From contig JAPOWG010000003.1 in the NCBI GenBank assembly GCA_026707745.1, positions 1-64,000 of the forward strand: a stretch of 64,000 nt of DNA. The letters are read 5' to 3'. A model generated the notes under the pieces. It had not been told where the DNA came from. It did not search any database and worked only from the letters and a program-made list of their open reading frames with translations. Below are positions 51,274 to 63,956 of the stretch, piece by piece. The translations under genes and the position numbers were made by a program. Within the stretch, counting starts at the first letter, position 1. The number at the start of each line of letters is the position of its first letter. This DNA is from Chloroflexota bacterium (GTDB taxonomy: Bacteria; Chloroflexota; Anaerolineae; Aggregatilineales; Phototrophicaceae).

Positions 51274-51586
51274 TGCTCTGTTTCTTTCTGTATGCATGTG
51301 GATCTATATGTTCCATGCCGGCGCCAGGTTGTCCTTGCGGTTTGACAGATCCAGCGTCGGATGATTGCGCAGCCGCTCGCGGGGAGTTTAGCCGTATATG
51401 GCCGCAACTGCCAGTTCCTAGGTAACGACCCCGGACACAGTTGCAAATACTGATTTTAGCATATTGTGTTACCGGTTCGCGGCGAGCGCCTTCATTTGCT
51501 TATTTACCCGAAGTTAGCTATAATATCGCAAACTTTTTTTTCGCATTCACGAATTCTGCAAAATTTTGTGCAGACAGGAGGAAATC
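51274..51586. other. Divergent intergenic region, 313 bases
   Basis: Holds the promoter of the peptide-importer operon (51496-51524) and a purine-rich leader with AGGAGG before its first gene. A C/G-rich central part (51360-51400) shows no gene. No clear promoter for the oxidoreductase was found on the minus strand. Confidence 0.55.
51496..51524 (+). promoter_or_regulatory. Sigma-70-type promoter of the dipeptide-type importer operon
   Basis: TTGCTT (51496-51501) and a perfect TATAAT (51519-51524) are 17 bases apart, about 60 bases before the ATG at 51587. Confidence 0.65.
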
Positions 51587-53143
51587 ATGTCAAAACGTAT
51601 GCTAGTTATCGGTCTTTTGCTCGGCTTGCTGCTGATCCCGTCAGTGACCAGCTTGGCGCAAGACGATATCCTGCTCTATGGCGGCAACCAGGATATCGAG
51701 AACATCGACCCGGCCACGGGCGAAAACTACTCGATCAACGCCGCGTTGCGCAGCCTTTACGACGCGCTTTACATTTACCGCGGCAGCGATACGATCCCGC
51801 ACCTGGTGGACAGTTACGAAGTCAATGACGACGCGACAGTCTGGACCTTCCACTTGAAAGACAACGCCGTATTCCACGATGGCAGCTCGGTCAACGCCGA
51901 TGCGGTCGTATACAGCTTCAACCGGATTCTGGCGATCTCCGGTCCGCCGAGTTGGCGCTGGGCGACCATCGCCGATGAGAATACCGCAGCAGCGGTCGAC
52001 GAGTTCACTGTACAATTCACGCTGACGCAGCCCTACGCCCCCTTCATTGGCACACTGCCGCAACTGTTTGTCGTCAATCCCGCCATTGTCGAAGCCAACC
52101 TGGGCGACGACATGGGCCAGAGCTATCTGAAAGAGAACGCGGCTGGCTCCGGTCCCTTCACGCAGGGACGCTGGGAGATCGGCAACCTCTACGAATTCAT
52201 CGCCGTCGACGACTACTGGGCTGGCTGGACCGGAGACGATCATCTCGACGGGTTTGTCTGGGTCATCCAGCGCGATGCGTCGACTCAGCTGAACTCCCTG
52301 CTGGCTGGCGAAACTCATATCGCCGATACTGTGGCGGCCAGCGACAAAGAGAAAATCGTTGGTTCCGAGGACTACGTTTGGGAAGAGCACGGCGGTTTCT
52401 TCACCAATACGCTCAAGATGAACAATACGGGCGAATACACCAGCGACATCAATCTGCGTAAAGCCGTCGCCCATGCGATGAACTATGAAGCCATGGTCGA
52501 AGCGCAGGATGTCAAGATCACCATATTGCCAGGTCCGACGCCGGCGAATTTCGTGGGCTATGTTGATGGCTTGGACTATCCCAAATATGATCTGGACAAG
52601 GCGCGCGAATACTTGGCGATGACGCCTTGGCCGGACGGCGGCATCACCTTGGATTACGTCTACGTCACCGACTTCCCGCGCGAGGAGATCCCGGGCTTGA
52701 TCCTGCTGGAAGGGCTTGCGCAGTTGAACATTGAACTCAATATGATCCCCATGCTTTGGCCCGATATGACTGCAAGCTGTGGCTCGCAGGAAACTGGACC
52801 GGACATCATCAACATCTACACCCTGCCGCCATTCCTGGATCCGGACGCTCATCTCTACAACCAGTATCACTCGGGCCAATGGGGCAGCTTCAATTCCTGC
52901 AGCTTCTACCAGAACGACCGCGTCAACGAACTGCTGGATACCGCCCGCGTCATCGGCGATGCCGCGGAGCGCGCCGCGCTCTACACAGAAGCGCAAGAAA
53001 TAATCGCCGCCGAGCAGCCCTCGGTCTGGATGTATACCGAAGACAGCAGCATATCGATCAACAACTGTGTCAAGGGTTTTGTCTACTCGCCGATGTATCC
53101 AATCACGGTCCTCTTCCAGGATCTGTGGATGGAAGGTTGCTAA
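51587..53143 (+). CDS. Dipeptide/oligopeptide-type ABC substrate-binding protein
   Basis: 518-aa family 5 solute-binding protein (DppA/OppA type). Signal peptide KRMLVIGLLLGLLLIPSVTSLA ends before QDDI. Family features are 'DIENIDPATGENYSINAALRSLYDALY', cut here for length, then 'YEVNDDATVWTFHLKDNAVFHDG' and 'INLRKAVAHAMNYEAMV'. AGGAGG lies six bases before ATG 51587. Ligands in this family include peptides, opines, nickel and sugars; the downstream DUF917 gene may hint at a cyclic amide or amino-acid derivative. Confidence 0.87.
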   Translation: MSKRMLVIGLLLGLLLIPSVTSLAQDDILLYGGNQDIENIDPATGENYSINAALRSLYDALYIYRGSDTIPHLVDSYEVNDDATVWTFHLKDNAVFHDGSSVNADAVVYSFNRILAISGPPSWRWATIADENTAAAVDEFTVQFTLTQPYAPFIGTLPQLFVVNPAIVEANLGDDMGQSYLKENAAGSGPFTQGRWEIGNLYEFIAVDDYWAGWTGDDHLDGFVWVIQRDASTQLNSLLAGETHIADTVAASDKEKIVGSEDYVWEEHGGFFTNTLKMNNTGEYTSDINLRKAVAHAMNYEAMVEAQDVKITILPGPTPANFVGYVDGLDYPKYDLDKAREYLAMTPWPDGGITLDYVYVTDFPREEIPGLILLEGLAQLNIELNMIPMLWPDMTASCGSQETGPDIINIYTLPPFLDPDAHLYNQYHSGQWGSFNSCSFYQNDRVNELLDTARVIGDAAERAALYTEAQEIIAAEQPSVWMYTEDSSISINNCVKGFVYSPMYPITVLFQDLWMEGC

Positions 53144-53163
53144 AACATATCCCCACCCTACAT

Positions 53164-53242
53164 CCCTCCCCCATAAAGAGGGAGGGACTTTGAATCTCTT
53201 GAACCCGCGAGTGCTCCCCTTCCCTCATTTTGGGGGAAGGGG
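53164..53242 (+). repeat. Two GC-rich hairpins between binding protein and permease genes
   Basis: ccctccc/gggaggg (53164-53170, 53180-53186) and ccccttccc/gggaagggg (53216-53224, 53234-53242) form two stems in the 129-base gap. They look like REP-type palindromes and may stabilise the binding-protein part of the transcript or cut transcription into the permease genes. Only a single pair occurs in this window. Confidence 0.5.
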
Positions 53243-53272
53243 TTGGGGGACGGGGGTAGAATTGCACTGTTC

Positions 53273-54286
53273 ATGAACCTCCGATTCTATCTGCTGCGCC
53301 GAATCGCGCTGATCGTTCCCACGCTGATCGGCCTCAGCATCCTCACCTTTTCCATCGCCCGCCTAGTGCCGGGCGATCCCGTCGGGCTGGCTGCCGGGCC
53401 CCAAGCCACCGAAGAGATCAAAGAAGCGCTGCGGCGCGAATTCGGGCTTGATCAACCGCTGCCGGCGCAATATATCAACTATATGGCGGGTCTTTTCCGC
53501 GGCGATTGGGGGCAATCGCTCTATACGCGTCGCGATGTCTTGCCTGACTTGCGGACTTTCTGGCCGGCGACGCTGGAATTGACTACCATCGCTGTCATCA
53601 TCGCCACGCTCTTGGGTGTGCCAGCAGGGGTCATCTCTGCCATGTATCGCAATCGACTGCCTGATCATGTCGCGCGCATATTGTCGTTGTTCTTTGTCAG
53701 CTTTCCGGCATTTTGGCTGGCGATGATCTTCCAAACCTGGTTTGGGCGTGATTTGGGCATGTTCCCGATCAATAAGCGCTTGCCTGTCCTCGTCGCGCCG
53801 CCCCCGACCACAACGGGTTTATTCTTGGTTGACAGCTTGATCCAGCTTGATTTTGAGACCTTCATGGTCTCGCTGAGGCATATATTTATCCCTTCGTTAG
53901 TGCTGTCCTTTAGCGCCTTCGCCAGCATCACACGCATCACGCGCGCCAGCATGGTAGAAGCGCTGGAGAAGGACTTCGTGCGCATGGAGCGCGCCATCGG
54001 CATCCCTTATCGCATCATCATTTTTAAGTATGTCTTGCGCAACGCCTTCATCGCGACTATCACCGTCATCTCGCTCAATTTCGGCTGGTTAATGGCGGGC
54101 GCCATTTTGATCGAAACCATTTTCGATTGGCCCGGGCTGGGTCTTTACGCTGTGCACGCTTCGCTGAGTCTGGATTTCCAACCGATTATGGGTATCGCCT
54201 TTCTTTATGGAGTTGTCTTTAGCCTGATCAATATCCTGACGGATATGGTCTATGGCATTTTGGACCCGAGGATTCGCTATGGCTGA
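53273..54286 (+). CDS. Dipeptide-type ABC permease, DppB type
   Basis: 337-aa permease with the family start FYLLRRIALIVPTLIGLSIL and 'ARLVPGDPV'. The EAA-type loop is DFVRMERAIGIPYRIIIFKYVLRNA, and the usual 'ETIFDWPGLGLYA' follows. It overlaps the DppC-type gene by eight bases. ATG 53273 is the normal family start. Confidence 0.87.
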   Translation: MNLRFYLLRRIALIVPTLIGLSILTFSIARLVPGDPVGLAAGPQATEEIKEALRREFGLDQPLPAQYINYMAGLFRGDWGQSLYTRRDVLPDLRTFWPATLELTTIAVIIATLLGVPAGVISAMYRNRLPDHVARILSLFFVSFPAFWLAMIFQTWFGRDLGMFPINKRLPVLVAPPPTTTGLFLVDSLIQLDFETFMVSLRHIFIPSLVLSFSAFASITRITRASMVEALEKDFVRMERAIGIPYRIIIFKYVLRNAFIATITVISLNFGWLMAGAILIETIFDWPGLGLYAVHASLSLDFQPIMGIAFLYGVVFSLINILTDMVYGILDPRIRYG

Positions 54287-55184
54287 GTCCGACAAGCGCA
54301 AGACCGCAAAACGGAACGAAGCGCGCTCGGCCCGTTGGGAGAACTTCGCCCGCGGCTTGTATCGCTTTCGCTCCAACCGGCTCTCGATGATTGGTCTGTT
54401 AATGTTGATCTTCATCTTGCTGGTGGCGATCTTCGCACCAATCATCGCGCCCTATCCCGAGGACGCCGCCGGCAAGACTCGTGTCATGGCGCGTCTGCAA
54501 CCGCCGAGCGAGGATTTTGTCTTTGGCACGGACAAGATTGGGCGCGATATCTTCAGCCGCGTGGTCATGGGCACGGGATTGGCGCTGCAAGTCGGCACCG
54601 TGATTATCTTGCTTGCGACCAGCATTGGCGTCACCATCGGCGCGGTCTCGGGTTATGCTGGCGGCTGGGTCGATGACATCCTCATGCGCATCACCGATAT
54701 TTTTTTGACCGTGCCCGCCCTGGTGCTGGCGATCGCCATTTCCGCGGCGCTGGGCAAGGGCATCATCAATGCCATGATCGGCATTTCGTTGGTTTGGTGG
54801 CCGGGCTTCGCCCGCTTGACCCGCAGTCTGGTATTGTCCTTGCGCGAAGAGCCCTTCGTCGAAGCCGCATACGGCATCGGCGCTGGTCATATGCGCATCA
54901 TCTTCCGTCATATTCTGCCCAATGCGGTGTCGCCAATCATCATCAAGATGACCACCGACTTCGGCTTCGCAGTTTTGACCGCTGCGGCGCTGGGATTCAT
55001 CGGGCTGGGCGCGCAGCCGCCGACCCCGGAGTGGGGCGCCATGATCAACGACGGCCGCCGTTATTTCCCCGATGAGTGGTGGATCGCCACCTTCCCTGGT
55101 CTGGCAATCTGGTTGATGGTCTTCAGTTGGAATCTGATCGGCGACGGCTTGCGCGATGTCTTGGATCCGCGCGCGCGGCGGTAG
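54279..55184 (+). CDS. Dipeptide-type ABC permease, DppC type
   Basis: 301-aa permease. A cytoplasmic N-terminus of about 45 residues precedes the first helix (MIGLLMLIFILLVAIFAPIIAPY). 'FGTDKIGRDIFSRVVMGTG' and the EAA-type loop PFVEAAYGIGAGHMRIIFRHILPN are typical. ATG 54279 overlaps the DppB-type gene; the ATPase gene begins one base after its stop. Confidence 0.87.
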   Translation: MAESDKRKTAKRNEARSARWENFARGLYRFRSNRLSMIGLLMLIFILLVAIFAPIIAPYPEDAAGKTRVMARLQPPSEDFVFGTDKIGRDIFSRVVMGTGLALQVGTVIILLATSIGVTIGAVSGYAGGWVDDILMRITDIFLTVPALVLAIAISAALGKGIINAMIGISLVWWPGFARLTRSLVLSLREEPFVEAAYGIGAGHMRIIFRHILPNAVSPIIIKMTTDFGFAVLTAAALGFIGLGAQPPTPEWGAMINDGRRYFPDEWWIATFPGLAIWLMVFSWNLIGDGLRDVLDPRARR

Positions 55185-55185
55185 C

Positions 55186-56217
55186 ATGCCAATGGCTGAT
55201 TTGCTCAACATAGAAGATCTGCACTTGGAATTCCACACCTACGACGGCGTGGCCAAAGTGCTGGCAGGGGTCGACTTGAAAATGCAGCGCGGCGATGTGC
55301 TGGGCTTGGTCGGCGAAACGGGCTGCGGCAAATCGATGACAGCGCTTTCCGTGCCGCGATTGATCCCCATGCCGCCGGGCAAGATCACAGAAGGCCGCGT
55401 CACTTTCGATGGCGAAGACATCCTGAGCAAGTCGGAAGGCGAAATGGAGACTTTCCGCGCCAGCCATCTGGGCATGATTTTTCAGGATCCGGTCACGAAT
55501 CTGAATCCGCTCTTTACCATCCGCGAGCAATTGGTGGATTCTGTGCTCTATCAACAAGCGCGCGGACAAAAGGTGCCCGGGCGTTGGAAGGGATTTATGC
55601 CATCGGTGCGGCAGTTGCGGGCCGAGGCCCAGGAACGCGCGGTTGAATTGATGCGCCTGACGGGCATTCCCGATGGCGACAAGCGCATTTTTGAATATCC
55701 GCATCAATTCAGTGGCGGTATGCGCCAGCGCGTGTTGATCGCTATGGCCTTGGCGGGCGATCCGGATTTGTTGATCGCCGATGAACCGACCACCGCCCTC
55801 GATGTCACCATTCAGGCGCAGATCCTGCGCTTGATACGCTCTCTGGTCAAACAGCTCGGGTTGACCGTCTTGCTCATCACCCACAATCTCGGCGTGGTCG
55901 CGCGTAGCTGCGAACGCGTCGCCGTGATGTATTCCGGGCGCGTCGTCGAAGAATCGCCGGTGCGCGAACTCTTCAAGAATCCCAAACATCCCTACACACG
56001 CGGTTTGATCAATGCCGTGCCACAAAAGGATGTCAGTCGCGGCGGACTGATCGGTATTCCGGGCATGATCCCGAATTTGATCGACCCGCCGGCGGGTTGC
56101 CGTTTTCATCCCCGCTGCGAACAGGCGATGGAGATCTGTCGCCGGCAGGTTCCGGCGGCGATCGCGGTCGGCGCGGAACACAAGGCATCGTGCTTCCTGT
56201 ACCCGGAGGATGCATGA
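55186..56217 (+). CDS. Dipeptide-type ABC ATPase, DppD type
   Basis: 343-aa ATPase. Walker A GETGCGKS, signature [15 protein letters not shown], Walker [13 protein letters not shown], and the family C-terminus with clustered Cys ([20 protein letters not shown]), which in relatives can bind an Fe-S cluster. An ATG at 55186 is used; a second one two codons on is equally possible. It overlaps the DppF-type gene by four bases. Confidence 0.87.
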
Positions 56218-57212
56218 GCCGCCTGCTGGAGATCAATCATCTGAAGAAATACTTTCCCATTCGCGGCGGCTTGCTAAACCGACGGGTGGCGGACTTCCGC
56301 GCGGTCGACGACGTCAGCTTCACGCTGCAAGAAGGCAAAACCCTGGGATTGGTCGGTGAATCCGGTTCCGGCAAGACGACCATCGGCAAGTGCATATTGC
56401 GACTTTTGGAGCCCACGTCCGGACAGATACTCTACGACGGGCAGGACATCACGCATATCAAAGCCCGTGAATTGCGTCGCCTGCGCAGCGAGATTCAGAT
56501 GATCTATCAAGCGCCGGCCGCCTCATTGAACGGGCGCATGACTGTCGGGCAGATTATCGGCGAGCCACTTTGGATCCACGAAAAGCTGCGTGGAGACGAA
56601 GCGCGCGACCGCGTGCTGGAACTGATGACCGTGGTTGGTTTGAAAGAAGAGCACTACTACCGTTACCCCCACGAATTCAGCGGCGGGCAGCAACAGCGCA
56701 TTGGCATCGCTCGCGCCCTGGCTGTGCAGCCGCGCTTGATCGTTCTCGACGAGCCGACCTCGGCGCTGGACGTTTCCGTTCAAGCGCAAATATTAAACTT
56801 GTTGCAAGACTTGCAAGATCAATTCGACTTAACTTATCTCTTTATCTCGCATGACCTGGGCGTGGTGCGTTACATGTGCGACGAAGTCGCCTTGCTTTAT
56901 CTGGGCAAAATCGTCGAAGTGGCGAAGACCGAAGTCATTTTTGAAGAACCCAAGCACCCCTATACCCAGGCGCTGATTTCCGCCATTCCCGAACCTGATC
57001 CAGATCTGCAACGGGAGGAAATCATCATCCGCGGCGATCTGTCGCACGCTTTTCCGCAGAAAGGTTGTCCCTTTGCGCCGCGCTGCCATGCCGAAAAACT
57101 TGCGAGCTGCGATTCCGTTTTGCCACCGTTGCTCGAAGCGGACCGTGGGCATCTGGTCGCCTGTCATTTGCATCCTGCCTTATCCGCATCATCCGCATCG
57201 GAGTCCCCTTGA
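56214..57212 (+). CDS. Dipeptide-type ABC ATPase, DppF type
   Basis: 332-aa second ATPase of the importer. Walker A GESGSGKTT, signature FSGGQQQRIGIARAL, Walker B IVLDEPTSALD, and the C-terminal Cys motif GCPFAPRCHAEKLASCDS. ATG overlaps the DppD-type stop as ATGA, and its own TGA overlaps the start of the DUF917 gene as TGATG, so all five proteins from B to DUF917 are translationally linked. Confidence 0.87.
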   Translation: MSRLLEINHLKKYFPIRGGLLNRRVADFRAVDDVSFTLQEGKTLGLVGESGSGKTTIGKCILRLLEPTSGQILYDGQDITHIKARELRRLRSEIQMIYQAPAASLNGRMTVGQIIGEPLWIHEKLRGDEARDRVLELMTVVGLKEEHYYRYPHEFSGGQQQRIGIARALAVQPRLIVLDEPTSALDVSVQAQILNLLQDLQDQFDLTYLFISHDLGVVRYMCDEVALLYLGKIVEVAKTEVIFEEPKHPYTQALISAIPEPDPDLQREEIIIRGDLSHAFPQKGCPFAPRCHAEKLASCDSVLPPLLEADRGHLVACHLHPALSASSASESP

Positions 57213-58312
57213 TGCTCAGCCAAATCACATTGGAAGATATCCGTCCCATCGCCATCGGCGCCGGCATCCTGGGCACGGGCGGGGGAGGCAATCCCTATTT
57301 GGGCGGCTTGCACCTGGCGTCGATCATCCGCGAACTGGGACCGCAAAGCATGCTCGATCCCTTCGCGTTGCAAGATGATGCGCTGGTCTGTGTGGCCGGC
57401 AACATCGGGGCGCCGACGGTCAGCATCGAGAAGCTGCCGGAGGGCACCGAGATGCTGCGCGCCTTACGCCTGCTGGAAGAGCATATCGGACGCGCATTCG
57501 ACGCCGTCGCGATTGCCGAAATTGGCGGCGCCAATTCCATGCAACCGGTGATTGCCGGCTTATTGGCTGGCATCCCTACGGTGGATAGCGACAGCATGGG
57601 CCGCGCCTTTCCCGAGATTCAGATGTCCTCTTTTCTTTTCGACGGTGGCGTGACGGTCGCGCCCTATGCGATGGTAGACGCTGCCGACAACGCGGCGGTC
57701 GTTCCACAAGCGGTGAGCGACCTTTGGGGCGAAAAAATCGCGCGCAATATCGCCGTCAGCATGGGCGCCCGCGCCGGGCTGGTCAGCACAATTATGACCG
57801 GCGCGCAGTTAAAGGCGACCGGCGTTCACTACACGATGACCCTGGCTCATCATCTCGGCTGCCAGGTGCTTGCGGCGCAGCGAGAAAAGTCCGATGTGCC
57901 CGAGGCTGTGGCGAACGTGCTGGACGGCCAAGTCATTTTTCATGGCAAAATCAGCGATGTCGACCGCCGCGTCAGCAAGGGATTCGCGCGCGGCGGCGTT
58001 CGTATCGACAGCTTCAGCGGAGCGGATAGGCTGGCAATTGAATTCCAGAACGAGTTTCTGATCGCGTTTATCAATGGCGAGGTGGCAGTGACAACTCCCG
58101 ATCTCATCTGCATCGTCACGGAAGAAGAGGGCGAACCGGTCACGACGGAGTTGCTGCGCTATGGCACGCGCGTGGCTGTCATCGCTGTGCCGGCGCCCCC
58201 GCAGCTCAAGACAGGGGTCGCGCTCGAGGTGGTTGGACCCGGCGCCTTCGGCTACGATGTCGAGTTCCGTCCCTTGCCGGGCGGTGTCATTGGCCTGGCA
58301 TCAAGTCTATAA
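57212..58312 (+). CDS. DUF917 family protein
   Basis: 366-aa protein of the DUF917 family, relatives of which are found with hydantoinases and of which one member is the S-methyl thiohydantoin desulfurase. Family blocks: GAGILGTGGGGNPYLGGL at the start, 'EIGGANSMQPVIAGLLAGIPTVDSDSMGRAFPEIQM' cut here for length, and 'VGPGAFGYDVEF' near the end. The TGATG junction with the DppF-type gene indicates that it belongs to the importer. It may act on the imported ligand, for instance a hydantoin or cyclic imide, but no partner hydantoinase gene is present. Confidence 0.75.
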   Translation: MLSQITLEDIRPIAIGAGILGTGGGGNPYLGGLHLASIIRELGPQSMLDPFALQDDALVCVAGNIGAPTVSIEKLPEGTEMLRALRLLEEHIGRAFDAVAIAEIGGANSMQPVIAGLLAGIPTVDSDSMGRAFPEIQMSSFLFDGGVTVAPYAMVDAADNAAVVPQAVSDLWGEKIARNIAVSMGARAGLVSTIMTGAQLKATGVHYTMTLAHHLGCQVLAAQREKSDVPEAVANVLDGQVIFHGKISDVDRRVSKGFARGGVRIDSFSGADRLAIEFQNEFLIAFINGEVAVTTPDLICIVTEEEGEPVTTELLRYGTRVAVIAVPAPPQLKTGVALEVVGPGAFGYDVEFRPLPGGVIGLASSL

Positions 58313-58362: not shown

Positions 58363-59592
58363 GTGAGATTCAAATCGTTTGCGACAATCGTAGCGGTCTT
58401 CGCTCTGTGTGGCGCGGCATCGGCGCAGTCTTATTCGATTCGCGTGGATTTCAACACAAACCTGCGCGCTGAACCCAGCCTCGATAGCCAGGTCGTTGAA
58501 TCAGCGTCAGCCGGCTCCATCTTGCAAGTAATCGACAGTTTCAATCGCTGGTTGAAGATTAGCCGGAACAGTCGCGAAGTCTGGATGGCGAGTTGGGTCA
58601 GCCACAGCAGAATCGCGGAGGGCGGCCAGACAGCACCCCAGCCCGCGAGCTATATCGACAATTGTTGTTTCGTGGATCGGCAGTGCAATACCGAGCAGGA
58701 TTGGGAAAGTGGCTATTGGGCCTTCCAGCACGGCCAATGCGCCGCGCCGGCGCAGTCTCAGCCGCAAACATCGGCGCAGCCCGCCAGCAATGTGCCCGCG
58801 CAAGTAGACAACTGCTGCTTCGTCGACAGGCAATGCAATACCGATGCGGAATGGACCGACGGGTATCATGCATTTCAGACCAATCAGTGCCCGGTATCGG
58901 CGGGTGCTCAGCCAGTGGCAGCCACAAGCTCGCAAGCGCCAAGCTCGGCCGCAATACCGCTTTCGACGTCATACATGACTGAGGGGGTCAGGCGCTTCCT
59001 TGCCGATCCCTCCACAGATCCATTCAACAATTGCTGCTACATTCATCATCCGCGCTGCCAAAGCGAAGAGGATTGGACAAACGGCTATTGGGAATTCCAG
59101 AACAACCAATGTATCCGTCCTGCGCCTCTTAGGACACGGCCGACAGTAGAAGGCAGCGTCCGCTTTGTGAGCTATGCGGAAAGAGCCTTGGGATTGATAG
59201 AGATTCACGCGCCGGAGTGGCTGAAATACATCTACGTCAGCGGAATGCGGAAAATAAGAATGAACGATACCGTTCCAGTGGACTATTCGGGATCAAGGAT
59301 GGGCTTTAACAACGTCGGATGGATAACACATGTTGCGTTTCAGCAGCGTCATGATCCGAGTTGGACGCCAGCCGCCCACGAACTAGAGAGTATGGCTGGC
59401 GGACTCGCTCATGAAGCCTGCCATGCCATCCAACAGCGCACCTACAGCCAATCGGCCGGCTGGACGAACGAAGCGGCTTGCATTGAAGCGCAATTGGCTG
59501 TCATCGCGGCCATCAATCCCAACTCCCGGGATGTATGGTGGCTGCGGGATTTGATCGCCAATATCCAAAATCCGGACCGCTGGTGGTGGTAG
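58363..59592 (+). CDS. Secreted SH3 - NCC-repeat - HEACH protein, type A (copy 1)
   Basis: 409 aa. Signal peptide ending ASA|Q (about 21), then an SH3-like domain (23-85: 'SIRVDFNTNLRAEPS', 'SRNSREVWMASWV'), three Cys-rich units of the form DNCCFVDRQCxTxxxWxxGYxAFQxxQC (98-126, 148-176, 221-250, the last one altered) separated by Gln/Pro/Ala linkers, and a C-terminal domain with HEACH (350-354) followed by NEAACIEAQ. HExxH with a downstream Glu is the zinc signature of gluzincin peptidases, so a secreted metallopeptidase is possible. GTG start with GGAGG six bases upstream. First of four tandem paralogs; type A because its start matches the third gene. Confidence 0.72.
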   Translation: MRFKSFATIVAVFALCGAASAQSYSIRVDFNTNLRAEPSLDSQVVESASAGSILQVIDSFNRWLKISRNSREVWMASWVSHSRIAEGGQTAPQPASYIDNCCFVDRQCNTEQDWESGYWAFQHGQCAAPAQSQPQTSAQPASNVPAQVDNCCFVDRQCNTDAEWTDGYHAFQTNQCPVSAGAQPVAATSSQAPSSAAIPLSTSYMTEGVRRFLADPSTDPFNNCCYIHHPRCQSEEDWTNGYWEFQNNQCIRPAPLRTRPTVEGSVRFVSYAERALGLIEIHAPEWLKYIYVSGMRKIRMNDTVPVDYSGSRMGFNNVGWITHVAFQQRHDPSWTPAAHELESMAGGLAHEACHAIQQRTYSQSAGWTNEAACIEAQLAVIAAINPNSRDVWWLRDLIANIQNPDRWWW

Positions 59593-59675
59593 AGACACGA
59601 CAGTTCATGCGCAGATTGTTGGATTAATGTCAACAATCACGCAAGACGAAGGCAAATCAGAAAAGGAATTTCCCA
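59593..59675 (+). repeat. 83-base intergenic spacer repeated upstream of type B genes (copy 1)
   Basis: Matches the spacer at 62392-62474 at 78 of 83 positions by eye. It carries an 8-bp hairpin gattgttg/caacaatc with a 9-base loop (59614-59638) and the ribosome site AAAAGGAATTTCCCA before the ATG. It shows that the A-B gene pair was duplicated as a block. Confidence 0.75.
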
Positions 59676-61025
59676 ATGAGAGCGAAGCTGCTGGCGACAA
59701 TAATAGCCGTGTTTTGTCTATACAGTATGGCATCGGCGCAGGGCTATGATATTCGCACCACTAGCAGAAACAATTTGCGGGCCGCGCCCAGCCTTGATGG
59801 AACATTTCTTGAAACCGTGCCGTCGGGTACAGTCCTGCATGTCGTTGGCAGGTTGAACCGTTGGCTGAGGATTAGCCGAAACGGGCGCGAAGTCTGGATG
59901 GCGGATTGGCTAGGCTACAGCCGCATCGAAGGCAGCGAAGGTACAGCACCCCAGCCCGCGAGCAATTTACCCGCGAACGTTGACAACTGCTGTTTCGTCG
60001 ACCGGCTATGCAATACGGCTGCGGACTGGACAGAGGGCTGGCACGCCTTCCAAGGCGGCCTATGCGCCGCGCCCGCGCAGTCTCAGCCACAGACGCCCAC
60101 GCAGCCGGTCAGCAATGTACCCGCGCAAGTGGACAACTGCTGTTTCGTCGACCGGCAATGCCATACGCCTGTGGACTGGGAGATCGGCTATTACGCTTTC
60201 CGGGATGGTCAATGTGCCGCGCCGGGGCAGGCTCAGCCGCAGGCTTCGGCGCAGACCGTCGGCAATGCCTCCGGGCCAATTGACAACTGTTGTTTCGTTG
60301 ACTGGCAATGCCACAACGAGGGCGATTGGGAGCAAGGCTTTTACGCTTATCTAGCAGGCCAGTGCACGGTTTCGCCGGGCTCTTCGGCGTCGAGCCCGGC
60401 CGGGATATCAGTTTCGACGCCCAACATGACTGAGGGGGTCAAACGCTTTCTCGCCAATCCCTCCATAGATCCGTTCAACAATTGCTGTTTCATGCACTAT
60501 GATGGCACTTGTCACAGCGACGAAGACTGGGAGCGTGGCGCTTTGCAATATCAGAATCACCAATGCATTCATCCAGCGCCTCTCTGGACGCGTCCCGTAA
60601 TCGTGGGCAACGACTCGCCATTGGGCACAGTCAAGTTTACAAAACTTGTGAACACTGCCCTGGAATTGATGCGGGTTCATACGCCGGAGTGGCTGAAATA
60701 TATTGACGTCAGTGGGGTGCGGGAGTTTAGGCTGCTCCCTGCGGATGTCGGGGGTGGGTTCTTCAACCGGCATTGGTCCGTAGGGCATGGCTACTACAGT
60801 TGGCAGCAAGAAGATCCAAACTGGGAACCCGATCTCGATTATATTGTGGGTTACGCTGGCGGCATCACGCATGAAGCTTGTCACGCTATCAAGCAGCGAA
60901 CCTACACCCAGACAACGGGCTGGGCAAACGAATTGCCTTGCGTCGAAGCGCAGTTGGCTGTCATTGAAACAATCAAACCCGACTCCCGGGACGTTGGTTG
61001 GCTGCGGAATATGGCCGGACAGTAA
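59676..61025 (+). CDS. Secreted SH3 - NCC-repeat - HEACH protein, type B (copy 1), C-terminus frameshifted
   Basis: 449 aa. Signal peptide to ASA|Q, SH3-like domain (23-84, 'TTSRNNLRAAPSLDGTFLE'), four NCC units (102-130, 152-180, 202-230, 267-297, a 50-residue period for the first three), and the C-terminal domain with HEACH (399-403) and NELPCVEAQ. The protein ends at WLRNMAGQ where the paralogs continue ..N(I/L)xNPxxWWW. In another frame the DNA reads NRNPEYRRR, so an indel has cut about ten residues off the end. The zinc motif is intact, so activity may survive. Confidence 0.72.
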   Translation: MRAKLLATIIAVFCLYSMASAQGYDIRTTSRNNLRAAPSLDGTFLETVPSGTVLHVVGRLNRWLRISRNGREVWMADWLGYSRIEGSEGTAPQPASNLPANVDNCCFVDRLCNTAADWTEGWHAFQGGLCAAPAQSQPQTPTQPVSNVPAQVDNCCFVDRQCHTPVDWEIGYYAFRDGQCAAPGQAQPQASAQTVGNASGPIDNCCFVDWQCHNEGDWEQGFYAYLAGQCTVSPGSSASSPAGISVSTPNMTEGVKRFLANPSIDPFNNCCFMHYDGTCHSDEDWERGALQYQNHQCIHPAPLWTRPVIVGNDSPLGTVKFTKLVNTALELMRVHTPEWLKYIDVSGVREFRLLPADVGGGFFNRHWSVGHGYYSWQQEDPNWEPDLDYIVGYAGGITHEACHAIKQRTYTQTTGWANELPCVEAQLAVIETIKPDSRDVGWLRNMAGQ

Positions 61026-61155
61026 CCGGAACCCTGAATACCGGAGACGGTAAAGGTGGCACGTACGCCCCCGGTGGTTCGCACGCTCATGCGAGATGTT
61101 GGATTGATTTCGAAATTTTCTCAAAGAGAAGATAAATGAGAAAAGGAATTTCCCA

Positions 61156-62391
61156 ATGAAAGCGAAGCTGCTTGCGGCCATAGTATCGATTCTTGCTTTA
61201 TGCAGTGTGGCATCGGCGCAGTCTTATTCGATTCGCGTGGAATTCAACACAAATTTGCGCGCTGGACACAGCCTCGAGAGTCAGGTCGTTGAATCAGCGC
61301 CAGCCGGCTCCATCTTGCAAGTAATCGACAGTTTCAATCGCTGGTTGAAGATTAGCCGGAACGGTCGCGAAGTCTGGATGGCGAGTTGGGTAAGCCACAG
61401 CAGAATCGCGGAGGGCGGCCAGACAGCACCCCAGCCCGCGAGCAATATCGACAACTGCTGTTTCGTTGACCGGCAGTGCAACAGCGATCAAGAATGGACC
61501 GACGGGTATTGGGCATTCCAGAACGGTCAGTGCGCTGCCCCTGTGCAATCTCAGCAGCAAACGCCCACACAGCCCGTCAGCGGTGCGCCCGCGCAAGTTG
61601 ACAATTGCTGTTTCGTTGATCGTCAATGTAATACCGATGCGGAATGGACTGATGGCTATTGGGCTTACCAGAATAATCAGTGCCCGGTTACGGCGGGCTC
61701 ACAGCCAGTGGCAGCCACAAGCTCGCAAGCGCCGAGCGCTGCCGCAATAATGCTTTCGACGTCATACATGACTGAGGGGGTCAGGCGCTTCCTTGCCGAT
61801 CCCTCCACAGATCCATTCAACAATTGCTGCTACATTCATCATCCGCGCTGCCAAAGCGAAGAGGATTGGAACAACGGCTATAGGGCATTCCAGAACAATC
61901 AGTGTATAGGGCCGGCGCCTCTCGGGACGCGTCCCGCAATTGTGGGCGACGACTCGCCATTTGGAACCGCCAATTTTACAAGGCTTGTGAACGCCGCTCT
62001 GGATTTGATAGGGATTCATGCGCCGGAGTGGCTGAAGTATATCTACATCAGTGGAGCGCGAGAAATTCAGTTGCAGCCGCCCGACAGTGGAGGGGGCTTT
62101 GGCAATACCATTTGGGCCATACGCGGCGGCTTTAGCAGCGATTTTTACAACGATCCTAACTGGGCGCCCGACCACCATTTTGTTGCGGGTTATGCCGGCT
62201 TTATCGCTCATGAAGCCTGTCATGCCATCCAGCAACGTACTTACAGCCAATCTGAGGGCTGGACCAACGAAGCGGCTTGCGTCGAAGCGCAGTTGGCTGT
62301 CATTCAAGCCATCAATCCCAACTCCCGGGATGTATGGTGGCTGCGGGATTTGATCGCTAATATCCAAAACCCTGACCGCTGGTGGTGGTAG
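61156..62391 (+). CDS. Secreted SH3 - NCC-repeat - HEACH protein, type A (copy 2)
   Basis: 411 aa, nearly colinear with the first gene of the cluster: SH3-like domain starting SYSIRVEFNTNLRA, three NCC units (the third of the modified FNNCCYIHHPRC form) and HEACH at 352-356 followed by NEAACVEAQ and the WWW end. Long DNA stretches match copy 1 almost exactly (for example 61765-61900 against 58977-59112), which suggests recent duplication or gene conversion. The spacer upstream (61026-61155) differs from the other spacers apart from the last 19 bases and the ribosome site. Confidence 0.72.
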   Translation: MKAKLLAAIVSILALCSVASAQSYSIRVEFNTNLRAGHSLESQVVESAPAGSILQVIDSFNRWLKISRNGREVWMASWVSHSRIAEGGQTAPQPASNIDNCCFVDRQCNSDQEWTDGYWAFQNGQCAAPVQSQQQTPTQPVSGAPAQVDNCCFVDRQCNTDAEWTDGYWAYQNNQCPVTAGSQPVAATSSQAPSAAAIMLSTSYMTEGVRRFLADPSTDPFNNCCYIHHPRCQSEEDWNNGYRAFQNNQCIGPAPLGTRPAIVGDDSPFGTANFTRLVNAALDLIGIHAPEWLKYIYISGAREIQLQPPDSGGGFGNTIWAIRGGFSSDFYNDPNWAPDHHFVAGYAGFIAHEACHAIQQRTYSQSEGWTNEAACVEAQLAVIQAINPNSRDVWWLRDLIANIQNPDRWWW

Positions 62392-62474
62392 AGACGCGAT
62401 ATCTCATGCGCAGATTGTTGGATTAATGTCAACAATCACGCGAGACGAAGGCAAATCAGAAAAGGAATTTCCCA
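62392..62474 (+). repeat. 83-base intergenic spacer upstream of type B genes (copy 2)
   Basis: Second copy of the spacer at 59593-59675, with the same hairpin at 62413-62437 and the same ribosome site. Differs at about five positions, most near its 5' end. Confidence 0.75.
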
Positions 62475-63956
62475 ATGAAAGCGAAGTTGCTGGTGACGAT
62501 AGTAGCCGTGTTTTGTCTATACAGTATGGTATCGGCGCAGGGCTATGATATTCGCACCACTAGCAGAAACAATTTGCGGGCCGCGCCCAGCCTTGACGGA
62601 ACATTTCTTGAAACTGTGCCATCGGGTACAGTCCTGCATGTCGTTGGCAGGCTGAACCGTTGGCTGAGGATTAGCCGGAACGGGCGCGAAGTCTGGATGG
62701 CGGATTGGGTCGGTTACAGCCGCGTCGAAAGCAGCGCAGGTGCGGCGCCCCAGCCGGCGATCAATGTACCGGCGCAGGTGGATAACTGCTGTTTCGTCGA
62801 CAGGCAATGCCAGAGCGCGCAGGACTGGGAAAATGGCTACTGGGCCTTCCAGAACAACCAATGCGCGACGCCGGGGCAGTCTCAGCCACAGAGACCAACA
62901 CAGCCGGTCAGCATTGTAACCACGAATGTTGACAATTGCTGTTTTGTGGATCGGCAATGCCATACGCCTGTGGACTGGGAGAATGGCTATTATGCTTTTC
63001 GGGATGGTCAATGCCCGGCTCCAGCACAGTCTCAGCCCCAGACACCAACGCAGCCGGTCAGAAATGTACCGGCTAATGTTGACAATTGCTGTTTCGTCGA
63101 TCGGCAATGCCATACGCCTGCGGACTGGGAGAATGGCTATTACGCCTTCCGGGACAACCAGTGCGCGGCCCAGGCTCAGGCCCAGACATACTCACAGCCG
63201 GCGGGCAATGCCTCCGGGCCAATTGACAACTGCTGTAGGGTCAACCGGCAGTGCCACAACGCGGATGATTGGGACCAAGGCTTTTACGCCTATCTGGCGG
63301 GCGAGTGCCCGGTGTCGGGCGGCGCGAGAAGAGTGGCCTGGACCTCATACATGCCCGCCGGGGTGACGCAATTCTTAACAGATCTCTCCAGAGATCCGTT
63401 CAACAATTGCTGTTACATGCACCATGGCACCTGCCACAGCAGCGACGACTGGTCGCGCGGCCATAGGGATTACCGCAGAGGCGAGTGCATTCGTCCAGCG
63501 CCTCTTGGGACGCGCCCCGCGATCGTTGGCAACGACAAGTTCAGATACCTCGTGGAAAACGCCTTGGCGTTGATAGCGACTCATGCGCCCGAGTGGCTGC
63601 ACTTCATCGATAACAGCGGAACGCTTATGTTTGAAGCGCGGGTCGATCAAGCAGGGGGCTTTTATAACCAACAATGGTCCATCGTACATGGCTGGACCAA
63701 GTTTGAGAACGATGATCCGCACTGGTTGCCGGACTACGATTATTTGGTGGGTTATGCTGGCGGCATCACGCATGAAGCCTGTCATGCCATCATGCAACGA
63801 ACTTACAGCCAAACAGCGGGCTGGAGAAACGAGGCGCCTTGCGTCGAAGCGCAGTTGGCTGTCATCGAGGCTATCAATCCCAACTCCCCGGATGTCCCCT
63901 GGCTGCGGGACCTGGTGGCCAATATCCGCAACCCGGAAGTCTGGTGGTGGGACTAA
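62475..63956 (+). CDS. Secreted SH3 - NCC-repeat - HEACH protein, type B (copy 2)
   Basis: 493 aa, the longest of the four because it has five NCC units (VDNCCFVDRQC three times, then IDNCCRVNRQC and FNNCCYMHHGTC). Units two and three are almost identical in sequence, a sign of recent internal duplication. Signal peptide and SH3-like domain match the second gene. HEACH at 433-437 with NEAPCVEAQ, and the C-terminus is complete (NPEVWWWD). The first Cys pair of each unit plus the final Cys suggests disulfide-stabilised modules outside the cell. Ligand or peptide substrate unknown. Confidence 0.72.
   Translation: MKAKLLVTIVAVFCLYSMVSAQGYDIRTTSRNNLRAAPSLDGTFLETVPSGTVLHVVGRLNRWLRISRNGREVWMADWVGYSRVESSAGAAPQPAINVPAQVDNCCFVDRQCQSAQDWENGYWAFQNNQCATPGQSQPQRPTQPVSIVTTNVDNCCFVDRQCHTPVDWENGYYAFRDGQCPAPAQSQPQTPTQPVRNVPANVDNCCFVDRQCHTPADWENGYYAFRDNQCAAQAQAQTYSQPAGNASGPIDNCCRVNRQCHNADDWDQGFYAYLAGECPVSGGARRVAWTSYMPAGVTQFLTDLSRDPFNNCCYMHHGTCHSSDDWSRGHRDYRRGECIRPAPLGTRPAIVGNDKFRYLVENALALIATHAPEWLHFIDNSGTLMFEARVDQAGGFYNQQWSIVHGWTKFENDDPHWLPDYDYLVGYAGGITHEACHAIMQRTYSQTAGWRNEAPCVEAQLAVIEAINPNSPDVPWLRDLVANIRNPEVWWWD

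What the first reader, a model, noticed from the sequence alone, without database searches (positions are those of the whole stretch)
58363..63956. A-B-A-B tandem cluster of secreted SH3/NCC-repeat/HEACH proteins with variable repeat number
Four adjacent genes encode the same uncommon architecture: signal peptide, bacterial SH3-like domain, 3, 4, 3 and 5 copies of a Cys-rich module (DNCCFVDRQC...W..GY.AFQ..QC), and a conserved C-terminal domain with HEACH and a following NE..C(V/I)EAQ. The order is A-B-A-B, so a two-gene block was duplicated, and repeat numbers then changed within genes. The HExxH plus downstream Glu resembles gluzincin zinc peptidases, and the conserved Cys in HEACH could pair with the Cys of the second motif. 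SH3 domains often bind cell-wall or surface ligands. Together this suggests a family of exported, disulfide-rich enzymes or adhesins that diversify by repeat expansion. I do not recognise a characterised system of this kind.
Basis: partly seen in the sequence, partly recalled or inferred. Interest (0 to 1): 0.85.

Follow-up and report, generated by a model that had tools for sequence, protein, structure and literature searches.

The report
Secreted disulfide-rich zincin-like gene array
Bacteria that include known marine-sponge symbionts carry tandem arrays of one to eight genes for exported, cysteine-rich proteins ending in a protease-like metal-binding domain; the family is undescribed in the libraries searched here, and some conserved members have lost the residue a protease needs, so what the domain does is an open, testable question.

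Summary
Four tandem genes (58363-63956) encode signal peptide, bacterial SH3 domain, 3/4/3/5 four-cysteine "NCC" modules and a HEACH...E..C domain. A fifth gene lies just past the window (C117:64064-65530). The array sits at a conserved site, between an oligopeptide-importer/S-Me-THD block and a hydantoinase gene, holding 1-8 copies in related genomes. The NCC module was found in 33 of 34 genomes of this Anaerolineae genus and one other genus; MAGs whose origin I could verify are sponge symbionts.

AlphaFold2 gives the C-terminal domain a confident zincin-like fold. Across 196 unique domains the inferred ligands His, His, Glu are 194, 196 and 193 conserved. The two flanking cysteines occur together (175 both, 16 neither, 5 one), supporting a disulfide. 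The catalytic-base Glu of HExxH is replaced (Asp, Tyr, Asn...) in 24/196, about 12 changes on the tree, some in ortholog groups under purifying selection. So a metallopeptidase is likeliest for most members, not all.

The closest solved fold, the alpha-ketoglutarate HExxH hydroxylase ChlH, is not a family match: its signature is absent and profile-profile probability is 1.5%. No curated family covers either module. Function remains untested.

The parts
58363..59592 (+). Gene 1 (A type), 409 aa: signal peptide, SH3_3, 3 NCC modules, HEACH domain; GTG start with GGAGG upstream
58456..58596 (+). Gene 1 bacterial SH3 domain
   Evidence: PF08239 E 6.4e-10; fold of the gene 1 N-terminal model matches bacterial SH3
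58660..59112 (+). Gene 1 NCC modules at 58660-58740, 58810-58890, 59029-59112
59119..59589 (+). Gene 1 C-terminal zincin-like domain; HEACH 59410-59424, E..C 59470-59481
59676..61025 (+). Gene 2 (B type), 449 aa, 4 NCC modules; shortened C-terminal tail
60573..61022 (+). Gene 2 C-terminal domain; HEACH 60870-60884, E..C 60930-60941
61156..62391 (+). Gene 3 (A type), 411 aa, 3 NCC modules
61810..62388 (+). Gene 3 last NCC module plus C-terminal domain, the stretch modelled by AlphaFold2 (pLDDT 90.9, pTM 0.89); HEACH 62209-62223, E..C 62269-62280
62475..63956 (+). Gene 4 (B type), 493 aa, 5 NCC modules; about 450 nt identical to the fifth gene outside the window
63495..63953 (+). Gene 4 C-terminal domain; HEACH 63771-63785, E..C 63831-63842
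51566..57212 (+). Upstream oligopeptide/dipeptide ABC importer (SBP_bac_5, two permeases, two ATPases); the last ATPase is conserved next to the array in related genomes
57065..58312 (+). S-Me-THD (former DUF917) gene directly upstream of gene 1, the left border of the conserved site

Best explanation
A lineage-specific, tandemly expanding family of exported metalloproteins. Shown by computation: Sec-type N-termini (by eye); an SH3b domain; a row of four-Cys modules; a C-terminal domain with a zincin-like predicted fold in which two His of HExxH and a Glu 16 residues on (in most) are near-invariant, and two Cys that come and go together. Inferred: His/His/Glu bind one divalent metal (probably zinc), the Cys pair is a disulfide that clamps the two active-site helices outside the cell, the SH3b domain holds the protein at the cell's own wall, and NCC modules are disulfide-stabilised spacers or ligand-binding units whose number sets reach or avidity. 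Most likely activity of members that keep HExxH (all five genes of this array): hydrolysis of peptide bonds in extracellular proteins or peptides, in the sponge mesohyl if this organism is a sponge symbiont, possibly feeding the oligopeptide importer next door. Members with HYxxH/HDxxH/HNxxH would be non-hydrolytic partners, decoys or binders that keep the metal.
For: Fold and ligands: AF2 pLDDT 90.9, pTM 0.89; zincin folds lead the VIA-align list (8s5f Z 10.2 over 152 residues at 3.6 A; M1 aminopeptidases Z 6-7.7; Wss1 Z 6.8); many of the sub-threshold Pfam hits are HExxH families (DUF6782, SprT-like, BSP, MPTase-PolyVal, M91). H/H/E conserved 194/196/193 of 196 unique domains. Disulfide: both Cys 175, neither 16, one only 5, Fisher p 2e-19 (not corrected for relatedness); 65 of 65 domain-plus-module sequences have an even Cys count. 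Export and wall association: more distant Chloroflexota homologs are also exported and carry LysM-LysM (L178) or an SH3-like N-terminus (L174) in place of NCC modules. Real genes: dN/dS 0.04-0.64 in every comparison. Context: same site beside the peptide importer, 1-8 copies.
Against: HExxH Glu replaced in 24/196, about 12 changes on the tree, including HYACH and HDACH ortholog groups with dN/dS 0.10-0.34, so hydrolysis cannot be the only function. No experimental data. No family cut-off is reached in Pfam or NCBIfam by the C-terminal domain. Foldseek's own best E-value in PDB is only 0.13. Other family loci in this genome are not beside the peptide importer, so the nutrient-uptake link is weak. 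Model coordinates could not be inspected, so metal-site and disulfide geometry were not measured.
Confidence: 0.5

Rival explanations
1. Non-catalytic metal- or ligand-binding surface proteins (adhesins or decoys) built on a peptidase-like scaffold: the metal and disulfide hold the domain together and binding, not cleavage, is selected.
For: Inferred ligands and Cys pair more conserved than the catalytic Glu; HYACH and HDACH groups conserved across species; triple-domain giant proteins with two degenerate copies (MxNCH) around one HES/ACH; short NCC-only secreted proteins with no HExxH domain.
Against: 88% of domains keep HExxH; in peptidase families inactive paralogs commonly arise alongside active ones (general knowledge).
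Confidence: 0.25
2. Exported Fe(II)/alpha-ketoglutarate peptide hydroxylase related to ChlH (2-His-1-carboxylate site).
For: 8s5f is the best solved fold by a clear margin; TIGR04267 is the best curated profile (11 of 65 members at E up to 1, best 1.8e-6).
Against: Below the cut-off and confined to profile positions 1-74 of 177; genuine members in four genomes of this genus carry PWR..R and LHG after HEFLH, shared with ChlH in sequence, and 0 of 196 domains have PWR..RP; profile-profile probability 1.5% over 17 columns (against a profile of only 4 close sequences); no Arg or Lys column reaches 70% in the domain; little alpha-ketoglutarate is expected outside the cell (general knowledge).
Confidence: 0.08
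3. Cell-wall enzyme or self-processing protease acting on the bacterium's own envelope (SH3b/LysM-targeted), not on host material.
For: SH3b or LysM on homologs, including Chloroflexota of unknown habitat.
Against: The strong expansion with NCC modules is confined to one genus and one other; a housekeeping wall enzyme would be expected more widely.
Confidence: 0.15

Closest known systems
alpha-KG-HExxH peptide beta-hydroxylases (TIGR04267; ChlH, PDB 8s5f)
   Same: Closest solved fold (Z 10.2) and best curated profile up to the HExxH helix
   Different: Lacks PWR..RP and LHG; has a Cys-flanked E..C instead; exported with wall-binding and Cys-rich modules
M1 aminopeptidases and other gluzincins
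   Same: HExxH plus downstream Glu (H-x15-E here in most; H-x18-E in M1 from general knowledge); Z 6-7.7
   Different: No M1 profile hit; small stand-alone domain; probable disulfide between the two motifs; base Glu not invariant
Bacterial SH3 (SH3b) cell-wall proteins, e.g. NlpC and endolysin tails
   Same: PF08239 over cut-off; Foldseek best 2krs, NlpC proteins and endolysins
   Different: C-terminal part unrelated to the NlpC or amidase domains found with SH3b
DUF6782, SprT-like, M91 (Pfam zincins)
   Same: Weak hits around HExxH (E 0.0015-0.04)
   Different: Below every cut-off; no shared accessory modules

Membership tests
Zincin-like fold (gluzincin type) | HExxH helix with two His ligands | tested here: met
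   H 194/196 and 196/196; on helix 122-144 of the model. Glu of the motif 172/196. Metal binding itself not tested
Zincin-like fold (gluzincin type) | Third ligand Glu on a following helix | tested here: met
   E 193/196; helix 152-168 of the model
Zincin-like fold (gluzincin type) | Fold match to solved zincins | tested here: met
   VIA-align Z 10.2 (8s5f), 7.7 (4pj6), 6.8 (5ln5); Foldseek alone weak, E 0.13
Metallopeptidase | Catalytic Glu in HExxH | tested here: inconclusive
   Met in all window genes, but replaced in 24/196 homologous domains
Metallopeptidase | Peptide-bond hydrolysis | not testable with these tools
   needs protein
alpha-KG-HExxH hydroxylase (TIGR04267) | Profile score over cut-off (40 bits) | tested here: not met
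   best 28.1-29.2 bits, positions 1-74 of 177
alpha-KG-HExxH hydroxylase (TIGR04267) | PWR..RP signature after HExxH | tested here: not met
   0 of 196; present in true members of the same genus (RP in three of four) and in ChlH
Bacterial SH3 (PF08239) | Profile over cut-off | tested here: met
   38-40 bits against 27
M1, M4, M13, M48 peptidases | Family profile match | tested here: not met
   no such Pfam hit for the four window proteins at E up to 10 or for 65 domain sequences at E up to 1

The most novel reading that the evidence does not exclude
A new exported metal site in which a 2-His-1-Glu triad and a helix-clamping disulfide, not the HExxH base, are the selected core, so that one scaffold serves as peptidase in some paralogs and as metal-dependent binder or non-hydrolytic enzyme in others, diversified in arrays for life in sponges.
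Probability: 0.25. Interest if true: 0.75.

Novelty: new variant of a known kind. Interest (0 to 1): 0.58.

Why it matters
It names a large undescribed secreted family (up to 15 domain matches per genome at E 0.001, and a repeat module that no Pfam or PDB profile covers) in a bacterial genus whose verifiable members are sponge symbionts. Secreted effectors of sponge symbionts are poorly known; here the array, its variants and the key residues are defined well enough to test directly whether they act on host matrix, on nutrients or on the bacterium's own wall. The repeated loss of the HExxH base with the inferred ligands kept is a natural mutational series for asking what such a site can do without it.

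Tried and rejected
Viral origin: no relative in IMG/VR. The BFVD fold hits (U5XGM1 E 4.8e-5, IrrE-like PBS1 protein) show only a similar fold. Known peptidase family: no Pfam, NCBIfam or PDB sequence hit over a cut-off. alpha-KG hydroxylase membership: rejected on signature and profile comparison, though the comparison profile had only 4 close sequences. HTH_66 and phospholipase A2 hits to the N-terminal part are below cut-off and taken as chance. M48 control for loss of the HExxH Glu: a motif was found in 23 of 30 loci, 22 with Glu; too few to be significant (p 0.085, with the one exception counted as conserved). The sign test for Cys co-change on the tree had too few independent pairs (4) to reach significance, but none went the other way. 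The NCC fold: the N-terminal model is poor there (block pLDDT 39-82), so no fold is claimed. Sample names COS, RHO, APA, CO3638x and Plut could not be tied to hosts by text search.

Full report
OBSERVATION. The four ORFs at 58363-59592, 59676-61025, 61156-62391 and 62475-63956 are as described. Each has a typical Sec signal peptide (by eye...A-x-A-Q), a bacterial SH3 domain over the Pfam cut-off, 3, 4, 3 and 5 NCC modules, and HEACH followed by NE..C. The module is N-C-C-(x)5-C-(x)5-W-(x)2-G-(x)8-C in its commonest form; in an alignment of 33 divergent copies N, the four Cys and Gly are invariant. A fifth gene follows outside the window at L009:4064-5530.

ARRAY HISTORY. The spacers after genes 1 and 3 are 78 of 83 nt identical; N-terminal parts are 89% (genes 1-3) and 91% (2-4) identical against 62-69% across types. 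This supports duplication of a two-gene block. Genes 4 and 5 share about 450 nt at 100% while their C-terminal domains are 61% identical, which points to gene conversion or a recent partial duplication. Comparing orthologs, gene 2 and its counterpart in relative G032 have dN/dS 0.05 in the C-terminal domain, and all comparisons lie between 0.04 and 0.64: purifying selection, real proteins.

LOCATION. Upstream lies an oligopeptide ABC importer (SBP_bac_5, OppC_N, oligo_HPY) and an S-Me-THD gene; downstream a hydantoinase/oxoprolinase gene and more S-Me-THD genes. The same borders are found in eight related genomes with both sides on the contig, enclosing 8, 3, 3, 2 or 1 family genes (in one, G007, a second short gene with two modules but no HEACH or HDACH match), and further truncated contigs carry one border. 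Copy number at a fixed site is therefore variable. Other family loci in this genome (C12, C87, C85, C69) are elsewhere.

DISTRIBUTION. With the gene 3 domain as query, 32 of 34 genomes of the genus and one of another genus match, and no other of 151 genomes searched. The module profile matches 33 of 34 genus genomes plus that same other-genus genome and none of the rest of 101, and in an even draw of 400 Chloroflexota only this genome. A scan of 84,980 species with a HEACH-centred pattern gave 47 loci, all from MAGs titled Chloroflexi, Chloroflexota, Anaerolineae or Anaerolineaceae; the pattern limits that scan to HEACH-type sequences. Sponge origin is documented for the jk18x MAGs (Caribbean Ircinia, PMC9531527) and for MPMG bin20 (Aplysina aerophoba, PMC5649159); for the others the names suggest it but I could not confirm it. 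The C-terminal domain alone, searched as a profile, reaches more distant exported homologs in other Chloroflexota: SH3-like-HEYCH (L174), LysM-LysM-HEASH (L178), stand-alone HEVTH, HELTH, HELAH or HEATH forms (L176, L180, L181, L184). So the domain is wider than the NCC architecture, and wall-binding partners recur.

STRUCTURE. AlphaFold2 on gene 3's last module plus C-terminal domain with 65 sequences: pLDDT 90.9, pTM 0.89; order helix, helix, strands, HExxH helix (122-144), Glu helix (152-168), helix. Foldseek alone is weak (best E 0.13). VIA-align ranks 8s5f (ChlH, an alpha-KG-HExxH hydroxylase) first at Z 10.2, 152 residues, 3.6 A; then M1 aminopeptidases at Z 6 to 7.7 and Wss1 at 6.8. Values under 8 can be common arrangements, so only the zincin-like assignment is claimed. 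The SH3 domain is confirmed by fold; the NCC modules are not reliably modelled.

KEY RESIDUES. I aligned every homologous domain in the fetched loci to the profile, without requiring the motif: 196 unique domains cover all positions. Many loci came from searches with HEACH proteins, so frequencies are for this sample. First His 194, second His 196, third-ligand Glu 193. The HExxH Glu is Glu in 172, Asp 10, Tyr 10, Asn 2, Thr 1, Ala 1. On a FastTree tree built without the trait columns, Glu/not-Glu needs 12 changes. The HYACH group (six loci) and two HDACH groups have pairwise dN/dS 0.10-0.34. The Cys of HEACH and the Cys of E..C are both present in 175, both absent in 16, one (always the second) in 5. 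With all 65 domain-plus-module sequences having an even number of Cys, an inter-motif disulfide is the best reading. Giant forms exist in which flanking copies have lost the first His and the Glu (L221, L222).

TEST OF THE HYDROXYLASE RIVAL. TIGR04267 is the best curated profile (best member 28.1 bits; up to 29.2 in the genus), below the 40-bit cut-off and only over positions 1-74 of 177. Four genomes of the same genus hold true members, long proteins with a radical-SAM-like CNLDCDYCY motif (seen in the N-terminal residues printed for three of the four) and HEFLHQ.LYH...PWR.G.R..GGFLHG; one of them matches 8s5f at E 6e-21 and shares PWR..RP with it. No HEACH-family domain has PWR..RP (0/196) and hhalign gives 1.5% over 17 columns. 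In the characterised family, PflC shows hydrolysis when the leader peptide is missing (PMC12636437), which shows how close the two chemistries lie on this fold, but membership is not met.

MECHANISM. Shown: architecture, conservation, co-occurrence of the Cys pair, selection, synteny. Inferred: metal binding, disulfide, wall tethering, peptide hydrolysis. I give 0.5 to exported metallopeptidase for HEACH members, 0.25 to non-catalytic binder, 0.15 to own-envelope enzyme, 0.08 to hydroxylase. The recurrent loss of the base with the inferred ligands kept is the feature that most limits the peptidase reading and the most interesting result.

Noticed in passing
L309:357-2465 (-), L310:2000-4267 (-), L311:1636-3822 (+), L312:724-2823 (+): Four genomes of the genus carry genuine alpha-KG-HExxH proteins over the TIGR04267 cut-off; at least three look like radical-SAM fusions (ChlB-like RiPP enzymes).
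   Followed up: partly
L152:2699-6730 (contig C27 end): Tandem row of short secreted proteins with one or two NCC modules, several with Gln-rich stretches, and no HExxH domain: the module exists on its own.
   Followed up: partly
L221:405-4142 (-), L222:1-2924 (-): Giant exported proteins with three alternating NCC/zincin-like domains; only the middle one keeps HE.CH. L221 also has stretches that look like FN3 repeats.
   Followed up: partly
whole genome G000: 78 SH3_3 matches, including proteins with several SH3 copies on contigs C10 and C6: an SH3-rich repertoire.
   Followed up: no
NCC modules, e.g. 58660-58740: Cys spacing CCxxDRxC equals the CCxxHDxC core of secreted phospholipase A2 (from memory), without its His-Asp pair; PF00068 hits are weak (E 0.012) and a bacterial PLA2 is a weak Foldseek hit. 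Probably chance.
   Followed up: partly
L009:5648-11525: Downstream row of a hydantoinase/oxoprolinase gene and several S-Me-THD-like genes; substrate unknown.
   Followed up: no
L153:2348-3121 (-): SH3-type protein with one degenerate NCC module (NYC) and a different C-terminal part.
   Followed up: no
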